Position numbers and translations under genes: made by a program | Origin: Candidatus Aramenus sulfurataquae | GTDB taxonomy: Archaea; Thermoproteota; Thermoprotei_A; Sulfolobales; Sulfolobaceae | Reading direction: 5' to 3' | DNA: 64,000 nucleotides | Assembly (NCBI GenBank): GCA_000565255.1 | Contig: ASRH01000005.1 | Location: 26,348-90,347 of the forward strand | The notes under the pieces: model-generated | The model's input: only the letters and a program-made list of their open reading frames with translations | The model's database searches: none | What the model was told of the DNA's origin: nothing | Shown here: piece by piece, positions 8,372-34,132 of the stretch | Layout: each line of letters begins with the position of its first letter | Position numbering within the stretch: position 1 is the stretch's first letter

Positions 8372-8677
8372 TCAGTACGTCTCAAAGGACTCAAAGTCCC
8401 CCTTGTACTCCTCAAAGCGATAATCTACTTTCTCTACCTTCGACAGCGGTGGACCCCTCTTGACGACCTCGAGGAGCTTGTTTAACGCTTCCTCGTAACC
8501 CTCCGCTATCACCTCCACAGTACCGTCTGGAAGGTTCTTGGCGTATCCTCTTATCCCCAGCCTCGCGGCGTTAATTTGAACGTAACGCCTAAACCCTACT
8601 CCCTGCACTAGACCGTAAACCCTTATGTACATTCTCCTCAACATACGCTTCACCTCAGTGTCGCTCCACTTCTTCAC
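8372..8677 (-). CDS. acyP: Acylphosphatase
   Basis: Hydrolyses acyl phosphates. It is 101 residues and very close to the structurally studied Sulfolobus solfataricus enzyme, including the short N-terminal tail [16 protein letters not shown] that is disordered in that protein. The phosphate-binding cradle with its catalytic arginine is in [14 protein letters not shown], and the conserved Asn in [13 protein letters not shown]. The match of the N-terminal tail supports the start at 8677 rather than an internal ATG. It is probably transcribed on its own; ino1 diverges upstream. Confidence 0.95.
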
Positions 8678-8737
8678 TGGTCCGGGTTTTCCCTTTCATC
8701 ACAAACATATTTTAACTCTTTGTTATGCTTAAAAATT

Positions 8738-30794: not shown

Positions 30795-30869
30795 GGACCC
30801 GTAGCTCAGCCAGGACAGAGCGTGGGCCTCCGGAGCCCAAGGTCCCGGGTTCGAGTCCCGGCGGGTCCG
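30795..30869 (+). tRNA. tRNA-Arg (anticodon CCG)
   Basis: A full cloverleaf: acceptor GGACCCG (30795-30801) pairs with CGGGTCC (30862-30868), discriminator G; D arm GCTC/GAGC; anticodon stem TGGGC/GCCCA (30823-30827, 30835-30839) around loop CTCCGGA, anticodon CCG at 30830-30832; T arm CCGGG/CCCGG with TTCGAGT. There is no intron and no encoded CCA. It begins 1 nt after the argS stop. TTTAAAAT near 30752-30759 inside argS could be its promoter, or it may be processed from the argS mRNA. Confidence 0.97.
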
Positions 30870-31207
30870 CATGCCTTTTAAGGTTAAGATGGCACCCTCC
30901 GTAAAGGATTTTACGTGGGTAATGAATAGGGAAAGCCAGAAATCTGTCAGCAAATATTTGTTGGAGTTCCCCTACATCTACATTCTTCTGGTTCAATTTA
31001 CACGTGTGGCTACTCAGAGAACTGGTCAAGTTTTTTGATAGTTAAGAAGTTTGTCGTTCTTATATCAACAATATTAATTATAACACTATACTTATAAGTA
31101 ATTGATACTTACTATTCTAGCTCGTACGGGGAGAAGGTCATACCGGGAAAAGGTCTTACCATCAGTCATATGGAGAAGATTATTTAGCGTCAGCTGATAA
31201 ATATTAA
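30870..31207. other. 338-nt gap between tRNA-Arg and nrdJ with hairpin, repeats and promoter
   Basis: No convincing gene. On the plus strand there is a 49-codon ORF with ATG at 30891 (MAPSVKDFTWVMNRESQ, ending near 31040) of unknown value. A bipartite inverted repeat lies at 31035-31068 (TTGATA..AAGAA - 8-nt loop - TTCTT.TATCAA), preceded by a T6 run. The palindromic TATA-like ACTTATAAGT is at 31090-31099. A tandem repeat follows at 31129-31160. The region is AT-rich compared with flanking genes. Confidence 0.6.
31129..31160. repeat. Tandem 16-bp direct repeat upstream of the ribonucleotide reductase gene
   Basis: GGGAGAAGGTCATACC (31129-31144) is followed without spacing by GGGAAAAGGTCTTACC (31145-31160), 14 of 16 bases identical. 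Each unit ends in a GGT-NNN-ACC mini-palindrome. It lies 30 nt after a TATA-like ACTTATAAGT, so it would be at the 5' end of the nrdJ leader, or just upstream if the reductase uses a later promoter. It looks like an operator with two protein-binding sites or a leader element. Confidence 0.6.
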
Positions 31208-33712
31208 TTGAGTCAAATGCTAGCTAACATTAGCTTAGCAACTCTAAACAAGCTCTTCGTATTGAAGAGAGACGGTAGAAAGGAGGAATTCAAGTTTGAG
31301 AAGATACTGAACAAGCTCGGCTTCGTCCCAGACAAGGTAATGGACGGCATAGCACAAGACGTCCTCCAGCTTGCCAAGGACAACGTAATAGACACGAGGA
31401 CAATAGCCGACATTGTTGAGAGGAACTTGGTGGAGAACTCCTTGGAGCATCCTGAGCTAATGGATCTCGCTAAGAGGTACGTCCTTGCAAGGATATACAA
31501 TCACGTTTTTGGTAAGGGTAGATGGAAGCAGTTCGACGAGAAGGACTTGTTGATCACCTACAACTCCCTTAAGGTTCTAGAGGCCAGGTACTTGCTGAAA
31601 GACCCAAACACGCTGAGGTACATTGAGACTCCACAAATGATGTTCAAGAGAGTAGCCTCCTTCTTAGCAAAGGTCGAGGAGAGGTATGGAAAGGACGAGA
31701 AGGCTGTGAAGGAGATAGAGGAGAAGTTCTACGAGATAATGAGCGACCAAAAGTTCTTACCAAACACTCCCACGTTGATGAACAGCGGTACCAGGCTGGG
31801 AATACTCTCTGCGTGTTTCGTTCTTCCAGTAAAAGATTCTATGACTACTAGCGACGGAGACGGCATATATGATACCTTGAGGGCTATGGCTCTAGTCCAC
31901 CAGCAGGGAGGTGGAACCGGTTTCGATTTCTCAGAGCTTCGCCCCAAGGGCGATATTGTTGCATCAACTGCTGGCGTGGCTTCCGGTCCAGTATCGTTCA
32001 TGAAGATATTCGATGTATCTACTGATGTTGTAAAGCAGGGCGGAAAGAGGCGCGGAGCAAACATGGGTGTTATGCACGTCTGGCATTCCGATATAGAGGA
32101 CTTCATCCACGCCAAGACTGGACAGTTGAAAGACGTCCAACTTCAGAACTTCAACATTTCCGTTGGTGCGTATGACTACTTCATGGAAAAGGTGGAGAAG
32201 GGGGAGGAAGTCCCGCTCATAACGCCTAGAAAAACGAAAATCCCCGGCACTGACCACGACTACTACATAGTTAAGGCTAGGAACTACATGCATGAGGAGT
32301 GGGTACAAGAAGTAGTTCTGAACGAGTTAGAGGAGAAGGGTAGCGTCTACTTGGACGAGAGCAAAATCATCACCGTGGATGAGGCGCTAGTTATAGCAGA
32401 GAAGGAAGGCGCCATCACTAGGTGGGTGAACGCTAGAACTCTCTTCAACGAGATAGTAAAGGGCGCTTGGGACAGTGGTGACCCAGGCCTGCTCTTCATA
32501 GACACCATAAATAGGGGTCACCCAACTTGGTACCTTGGGAAAATACAGGCCACGAACCCCTGTGGAGAAGAACCACTGTTGCACTGGGAGAGCTGTAACT
32601 TGGGTTCAATAAACTTGGAGAAGTTCGTGAAGGAGGTAAACGGAAAGCCCGCAGTAGACTGGGATGGCCTCGCTGAGACCATTCGTTATGCAGTACGCCT
32701 CCTAGACAACGTCATAGACGCCAACCGCTACCCATTAAAGCAGATAGAGGAGGCCACTAAGAGAACAAGGAAAGTTGGACTCGGCGTAATGGGCCTCGCT
32801 AGGATGTTGATAAAGCTGGGCATACCCTACGACAGCGTCGATGCCGTGTATTTGTCTTACCAGCTCGCTAAGTTCATCTACTACCACGCTTTGAAGACGA
32901 CAATAGAGCTGGCCAAGGAGAAGGGGCCATTCCCTGGTTACGACGCTAGGCTCTACAAGGACATATGGGAGAACGCTAAGCCCCTAGAGGAGCTGTTAGC
33001 CATAGCAGGTATAGGAGATAGGCCTTCCGCCAAGGTCAAGGAGCTCGCCAAGGTCGTAGAGGCAATTGACTTCTCTAAGCTCAAGGGAGAGAGGCTTACT
33101 CACGGCTTGAGGAACGCCACCGTGGTTTCCGTAGCCCCAACCGGCACGATCTCAATCATAGCTGGAACCTCTTCCTCTATAGAGCCACTCTTCGCCCTAG
33201 CCTTCATCAGGAACGTAGCGGTTGGGAAATTCATGGAGATAGACCCCCTGTTCCTTGAGTACTTGAGGAAGTACGAGCTCGACAACCCAGAAGTGGTCAA
33301 GAAGGTAGCTGAGACCGGGATGGTAGGGGACAACGTCTTCATGCCCGCAACTATCCGCAAGTTGTTTAGGACTGCCCACGAAGTGCCTCCAGAGTACCAC
33401 GTGCTGCATCAAGCCGCTTGGCAACAGTGGAACGATTCTGGGACTTCAAAGACCATTAACTTGAGGTCTGAGGAGCCTCAGGAGACAGTTGAGAGGGTGT
33501 ATCTGATGGCGTGGAAGATGGGAATAAAGGGCATAACCGTGTACAGGGACAAGAGCAAGTCCCAGCAAGTCATCTACTTCGGCATAAAGAAGGAGAGGGA
33601 AGAGCTGGAGAAGAAGAAGGAAGGCAAGCTACTCCCCTCTTCCCTGAGGATGGAGAAGTACGTGGAAGTGAGCGAGAACTACGCCGGCGGATGTAAGACC
33701 TGCGAGTTATAA
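31208..33712 (+). CDS. nrdJ: Adenosylcobalamin-dependent ribonucleoside-diphosphate reductase (class II)
   Basis: 834 residues; makes deoxynucleotides from ribonucleotides. An ATP-cone (about residues 17-100, [18 protein letters not shown]) precedes the ten-stranded barrel. Catalytic signatures: [25 protein letters not shown] with the active-site cysteine, and [18 protein letters not shown]. The C-terminal GGCKTCEL carries the redox CxxC that re-reduces the active site. No NrdB partner is adjacent, consistent with class II. The start is TTG 31208 or ATG 31217. Regulation may involve the tandem repeat upstream. Confidence 0.95.
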
Positions 33713-33760: not shown

Positions 33761-34132
33761 ATGTCTCTTACATTACCGTGCGAGTTCTCTGTTAAAGAAA
33801 TACTGCCGGCTTTGAGGTCTATAATTGCCGAGAAGCTGGTCACGGAGAAAGGGATGCCAATCTATAGGGCAGCCAATGCTATGGGGCTAACCCCAGCTGC
33901 AGTGGCAAACTACGTGAACAAAAGGAGGGGGACTGGTATACGTGGACTTATAGAAAAGGACGAGAGGCTGATGAGCATGGTCAACGACCTCGTAGACAGG
34001 CTGACAAATAATAAGGTTGATAATCTCTCGACTTACTATTGCATACTCTGTTCAGAGGGAAAGAGGGCCCTAAAGAAGAGTGGGATGGAAGTCCCACCTT
34101 GCATGTACGAAAACTACGCCTTAATTAAATGA
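33761..34132 (+). CDS. HTH transcriptional regulator with C-terminal cysteines (COG2522 type)
   Basis: 123 residues. The N-terminal half is a helix-turn-helix (VTEKGMPIYRAANAMGLTPAAVANYVNKRRGTG, i.e. residues 30-60). The C-terminal half has C-x2-C in YYCILCSEGK and a further Cys in PPCMYENY, an arrangement seen in COG2522 regulators and thought to bind metal or an Fe-S cluster. It follows nrdJ by about 50 nt with its own possible promoter. Target unknown; the reductase is a candidate. The last 8 nt overlap the convergent gene. Confidence 0.75.
   Translation: MSLTLPCEFSVKEILPALRSIIAEKLVTEKGMPIYRAANAMGLTPAAVANYVNKRRGTGIRGLIEKDERLMSMVNDLVDRLTNNKVDNLSTYYCILCSEGKRALKKSGMEVPPCMYENYALIK

What the first reader, a model, noticed from the sequence alone, without database searches (positions are those of the whole stretch)
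31035..31207. Tandem 16-bp repeat and bipartite hairpin upstream of class II ribonucleotide reductase
Seen: GGGAGAAGGTCATACC directly followed by GGGAAAAGGTCTTACC (14/16 identical), a palindromic TATA-like ACTTATAAGT 30 nt before it, and an inverted repeat TTGATA..AAGAA/TTCTT.TATCAA at 31035-31068. No coding need explains them. Inference: an operator or leader RNA that sets dNTP supply. The HTH/Cys regulator gene right after nrdJ might be the trans-acting factor.
Basis: partly seen in the sequence, partly recalled or inferred. Interest (0 to 1): 0.52.

Follow-up and report, generated by a model that had tools for sequence, protein, structure and literature searches.

The report
Archaeal RNR box with linked regulator
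The repeat sits on a short DNA switch that many related archaea keep in front of the gene that makes DNA building blocks, and the gene next door is the best candidate for the protein that reads it.

Summary
The 16-bp tandem repeat is real (31129-31160) and the only adjacent pair of that quality in the window. It is a local duplication: the only congener held (G001) has one copy. What matters is inside it, GGTCATACC and GGTCTTACC, variants of a 9-bp odd palindrome GGTA(A/T)TACC. That box stands upstream of nrdJ in 28 of 30 Sulfolobaceae (shuffles 0.9), about 65 bp before the ATG, with an A/T-rich TATA position some 21 bp downstream. It recurs upstream of nrdJ in 30 of 50 other Sulfolobales (shuffles 2.1) and of class III nrdD in 10 of 30 (shuffles 1.2), so it looks like an archaeal RNR operator. 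The HTH gene 33761-34132 follows nrdJ in 30 of 30 Sulfolobaceae, has four invariant cysteines in 21 of 21 aligned, and co-occurs with the box across the order (23 of 26 genes against 17 of 54; post hoc, genomes related). It is the best candidate binder, but unproven: one family keeps box-like sites without it. The hairpin and the ACTTATAAGT palindrome are not conserved, and a leader RNA is not supported. NrdR, the known RNR regulator, is a different protein. The searches made found no report of this system.

The parts
31136..31144 (+). Upstream (auxiliary) RNR box GGTCATACC, 8/9 to GGTAATACC, left edge -81 from the ATG
31152..31160 (+). Main RNR box GGTCTTACC at the conserved position (left edge -65 from the ATG)
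   Evidence: same position class in 27 of 30 Sulfolobaceae loci
31129..31160 (+). 16-bp tandem duplication carrying the two boxes; single copy in the congener G001
31172..31187 (+). Inferred BRE/TATA region (GGAGAAGATTATTTAG), about 20 bp downstream of the main box
   Evidence: A/T-rich columns +30 to +34 from the box start; start site not mapped
31217..33712 (+). nrdJ, class II ribonucleotide reductase (ATP-cone, all-alpha and barrel domains)
33761..34132 (+). HTH protein with four invariant cysteines (C7, C94, C97, C114); candidate binder of the box

Best explanation
The repeat is a doubled operator of the nrdJ promoter. The operator unit is the 9-bp odd palindrome GGTA(A/T)TACC, which sits some 20 bp upstream of the inferred TATA box, where an upstream-bound factor can act on the TBP/TFB complex. 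Shown: the box, its position, its spread over class II and class III RNR genes in the order, and its single copy in the congener. Inferred: the adjacent HTH protein, whose four invariant cysteines look like a metal, Fe-S or thiol site, binds the box and sets RNR transcription, by activation rather than repression because the site does not cover TATA or the start. The second copy in this genome would add an auxiliary site 16 bp away.
For: Box at 8/9 or better within 150 nt of nrdJ in 28 of 30 Sulfolobaceae loci; shuffles mean 0.92 (max 4 in 300), other 150-nt windows of the same loci mean 0.49. Left edge -58 to -67 in 27 of 30; only the 9 columns and the TATA region stand out. 30 of 50 nrdJ genes of other families (shuffle mean 2.05, max 7) and 10 of 30 nrdD genes (shuffle mean 1.22, max 6). 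HTH gene directly downstream of nrdJ in 30 of 30 Sulfolobaceae, near it in G033, G053, G062, G050 and G040 beside a thioredoxin-fold gene and in G105. Co-occurrence: nrd-type recognition helix, 23 of 26 RNR genes with box against 17 of 54 without that helix (Fisher 2.4e-6); threshold-free test on HTH E-values p 8.6e-5.
Against: No binding or expression data. Family f5 keeps box-like sites with no HTH found (G034, G054, G071); G042 has boxes at nrdJ and nrdD with only a distant HTH. Eight of 30 genomes with an HTH at E 1e-10 or better lack a nrdJ box (G110, G125, G032, G063, G142, G074, G109, G112). The helix definition and the 1e-15 threshold were set after seeing the data, and genomes are related. 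4-bp half-sites with one spacer base are tighter than usual lambda-type HTH operators (recalled). No box is seen between nrdJ and the HTH gene in the spacers printed for 29 of 30 loci (by eye), so self-regulation through it is not supported.
Confidence: 0.65

Rival explanations
1. The box is a true RNR operator, but another, more widespread factor reads it; the HTH gene is linked for another reason.
For: Box-like sites without detectable HTH in f5 and with only a distant one in G042; HTH paralogues are several per genome.
Against: Linkage in 30 of 30 Sulfolobaceae and co-occurrence over the order; recognition helix conserved in most genomes where the box is.
Confidence: 0.25
2. The box is a basal promoter element (extended BRE or a general upstream element) rather than a regulator's site.
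For: Near-constant distance to the TATA region.
Against: In G000 and G001 the 60 GGTMATACC places exceed the reversed control only slightly (29 and 31 against 21 and 22) and nearly all others are in reading frames or an RNA gene; nrdJ is the only promoter seen to recur over several genera in the box-TATA-ATG pattern.
Confidence: 0.05
3. A leader RNA (bipartite hairpin plus repeat) controls nrdJ.
For: Hairpin 31035-31068 folds with z -3.4.
Against: Second arm missing in G001; 31068-31216 folds no better than shuffles; no Rfam match there; the box lies upstream of the inferred TATA.
Confidence: 0.02
4. The tandem duplication itself is neutral; only one of the two boxes matters.
For: G001 has one box; most Sulfolobaceae have one strong box.
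Against: Weaker second sites at 7/9 or better occur upstream in many relatives (left edges -76 to -98; L048 14 bp and L050 16 bp from the main box).
Confidence: 0.45

Closest known systems
NrdR and NrdR boxes (most bacteria, rare in archaea; PMC9110341, passages seen)
   Same: RNR-specific transcription control through palindromic boxes, often in pairs, serving RNR genes of different classes; cysteines in the regulator.
   Different: NrdR has a Zn-ribbon DNA-binding domain and an ATP-cone; the candidate here is an HTH protein with no match to either. NrdR boxes are described as a pair about three turns apart, often over the polymerase site; here one 9-bp box lies upstream of the inferred TATA.
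ThiR-type regulators (HTH fused to ThiN; name recalled)
   Same: The HTH domain is distantly related: the profile matches the N-terminus of an HTH+ThiN protein of this genome at E 7e-10.
   Different: No ThiN domain and no Pfam family over its cut-off in the window's protein; linked to RNR, not thiamine genes.
XRE/Cro-CI-like HTH proteins (HTH_3, C.Esp1396I, HigA)
   Same: HTH_3 is the Pfam family matched by most members (16 of 21 at E up to 1, best 5.4e-4); Foldseek's top rows are such proteins.
   Different: No significant fold match (best Foldseek E 0.44; best Z 3.9); the cysteine-bearing C-terminal part has no named relative in the searches made.

Membership tests
NrdR | ATP-cone domain in the regulator | tested here: not met
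   Pfam scan of the HTH protein: no ATP-cone
NrdR | Zn-ribbon DNA-binding domain | tested here: not met
   No such Pfam or NCBIfam match listed; model is all-helical
NrdR | An nrdR gene elsewhere in the genome | not tested
   No genome search was left for it
NrdR | Boxes upstream of RNR genes of more than one class | tested here: met
   nrdJ and nrdD, but with another box sequence
ThiR-type (HTH+ThiN) | C-terminal ThiN domain | tested here: not met
   the ThiN fusion is a separate gene, L239
XRE-like HTH | Significant match to an HTH family or fold | tested here: inconclusive
   HTH_3 best E 5.4e-4 among members; Foldseek E 0.44, Z up to 3.9
Archaeal RNR box (proposed here) | GGTA(A/T)TACC upstream of RNR genes beyond chance | tested here: met
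   28 of 30, 30 of 50, 10 of 30
Archaeal RNR box (proposed here) | Bound by the linked HTH protein | not testable with these tools
   Needs gel shift or ChIP

The most novel reading that the evidence does not exclude
Sulfolobales archaea have an RNR-specific regulatory system unrelated to NrdR: a four-cysteine HTH regulator, a redox or metal sensor, that reads one 9-bp box at both class II and class III ribonucleotide reductase genes and ties dNTP supply to thiol or metal state.
Probability: 0.5. Interest if true: 0.72.

Novelty: new variant of a known kind. Interest (0 to 1): 0.6.

Why it matters
How archaea control dNTP synthesis is largely unknown; NrdR is described as rare in archaea (PMC9110341). 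A box shared by RNR genes of two classes and a linked candidate regulator give a directly testable system in genetically tractable Sulfolobus, a model for the archaeal cell cycle.

Tried and rejected
A first relative search included the tRNA and mostly returned tRNAs. Structural homologues: none significant. The box in the nrdJ-HTH spacer or between HTH and the thioredoxin-fold gene: not found. Papers: searches listed no report of this box or regulator; the library holds few subscription papers, and the ThiR paper is not held. PMC5134839 (passages) says Sulfolobus RNR is class II; the passages seen tell nothing of nrdJ control. NrdR's presence in these genomes was not searched.

Dropped rows: G016 (Sulfolobaceae, 87% complete) has no nrdJ found. 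Of 56 non-Sulfolobaceae genomes with nrdJ, six were left out because the start of the gene was not located (G053, G072, G122, G126, G127, G138). Of 40 nrdD genomes over the cut-off, 30 were examined; of the other 10, G058 was looked at (no box). The divergent nrdJ of family f8 was fetched in part but not counted, nor were the other-class loci (one, L259, has GGTATTACA). Twenty of the genomes had no HTH sequence fetched and were scored as lacking the nrd-type helix; G049 and G099 (helix PAISNY, boxes 9/9) were scored as lacking it too.

Full report
Observation. The two 16-mers lie at 31129-31144 and 31145-31160 and agree at 14 of 16 bases. No other adjacent 16-mers in the window reach 14/16, and 0 of 5000 shuffles of the interval do. 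The hairpin 31035-31068 and ACTTATAAGT (31090-31099) are there too. The conserved start of nrdJ is the ATG at 31217.

What is conserved. nrdJ was found in 30 of 31 Sulfolobaceae genomes (none in G016). In 28 of 30 a 9-mer matching GGTAATACC or its complement at 8/9 or better lies within 150 nt of the ATG, against 0.92 on average (max 4) in 300 dinucleotide shuffles and 0.49 (max 3) in other windows of the same loci; 11 are perfect. In 27 of 30 its left edge is at -58 to -67. The two misses are L065, where two GATAATACC sites lie at -168 and -151, and L070 with GGTCATACT at -60. A genus-weighted profile shows only the nine columns and an A/T-rich stretch 30-34 nt after the box start, taken as TATA. 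In the window the promoter-proximal copy, GGTCTTACC at 31152, holds the conserved place and GGTCATACC at 31136 is extra. The congener G001 has one GGTCATACC at -65 and lacks the second hairpin arm and the ACTTATAAGT palindrome. Weaker upstream second sites are common in relatives.

Beyond the family. Among 50 nrdJ genes of other Sulfolobales families, 30 have a site at 8/9 or better within about 220 nt upstream (mononucleotide shuffles mean 2.05, max 7). Among 30 class III nrdD genes, 10 have one (shuffle mean 1.22, max 6), including perfect ones in G051 and G106 (f2) and G049 and G099 (f10), genomes without an nrdJ match at the threshold. Start sites in these genes were assigned by rule and may be off. 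Families f9 and most of f3 lack the box. In G000 and G001 all 60 GGTMATACC places were looked at: apart from the two nrdJ sites nearly all are in reading frames or an rRNA-like gene; two, not shared by the genomes, are in spacers. The rRNA identification is by recall. The box-TATA-ATG pattern in 31 genomes recurs over several genera only at nrdJ (8 genomes); the genes of the other places were not all checked.

The candidate reader. The gene 33761-34132 lies directly after nrdJ on the same strand in 30 of 30 Sulfolobaceae. In f4 and f11 (G033, G053, G062, G050, G040) a gene with thioredoxin-like domains on the other strand stands between them or beside the HTH gene (Pfam run on two of the five), and in G105 the HTH is about 1.3 kb downstream of nrdJ. 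The protein has four invariant cysteines in 21 of 21 aligned Sulfolobaceae members and a recognition helix, TPAAVxNY, kept in most families. The predicted model is helical (mean pLDDT 77, three-sequence alignment) with no significant structural relative. A ThiN-fused protein of the same genome has a distantly related HTH.

Co-occurrence. Over 80 RNR genes outside Sulfolobaceae, those in genomes with a strong HTH match have the box more often: at E 1e-10, 30 of 46 against 10 of 34 (p 0.003); at E 1e-15, 29 of 38 against 11 of 42 (p 1e-5); rank test p 8.6e-5. With the helix PA(A/S)(V/I/A)xNY: 23 of 26 against 17 of 54 (p 2.4e-6). The 1e-15 threshold and the helix were chosen after seeing data, and the genomes share ancestry, so these p-values overstate. 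Against: f5 genomes without HTH keep box-like sites, G042 has boxes at both RNR genes without a strong HTH, and f9 genomes G109 and G112, whose helix reads VSQY, lack the box. The last fits either reading.

Mechanism. Shown: an RNR-linked DNA element with fixed promoter position. Inferred: binding by the HTH protein; activation, from its place upstream of TATA; sensing of metal, Fe-S or thiol state, from the cysteines and the thioredoxin-fold neighbour. Confidence is about 0.93 that the box is a functional RNR operator, 0.65 that the HTH protein reads it, and 0.55 that it activates.

Known systems. NrdR does the same job in bacteria and is called rare in archaea (PMC9110341, passages), but the candidate shows neither NrdR domain. 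I found no report of this box or regulator in searches (listings only, apart from the two papers named).

Noticed in passing
window 8653-8706 (-): C/D-box RNA sR2 (RF01139) at 48 bits.
   Followed up: no
window 30795-30870: tRNA-Arg(CCG) directly after argS and before nrdJ; several relatives also have a tRNA here, some on the other strand.
   Followed up: no
L141, L142, and nrdJ of G135, G137, G142, G121, G145: nrdJ frames of 1037-1310 codons whose matches break near query residue 440-450, as if an intein sits there.
   Followed up: no
L242-L246: A thioredoxin-like gene (PF13192, two stretches in the two that were scanned) lies next to the HTH gene on the other strand, near nrdJ; possibly the RNR reductant.
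   Followed up: partly
window 31035-31068: A hairpin with z -3.4 that the congener does not keep; could be a terminator or chance.
   Followed up: partly
G109, G112, G067 (f9) HTH genes (L334, L335, L234): Recognition helix reads VSQY instead of VSNY; in G109 and G112 the nrdJ box is missing. A possible specificity change.
   Followed up: no
L239: HTH+ThiN protein (PF10120) in the window's genome, a distant relative of the nrdJ-linked HTH protein.
   Followed up: partly
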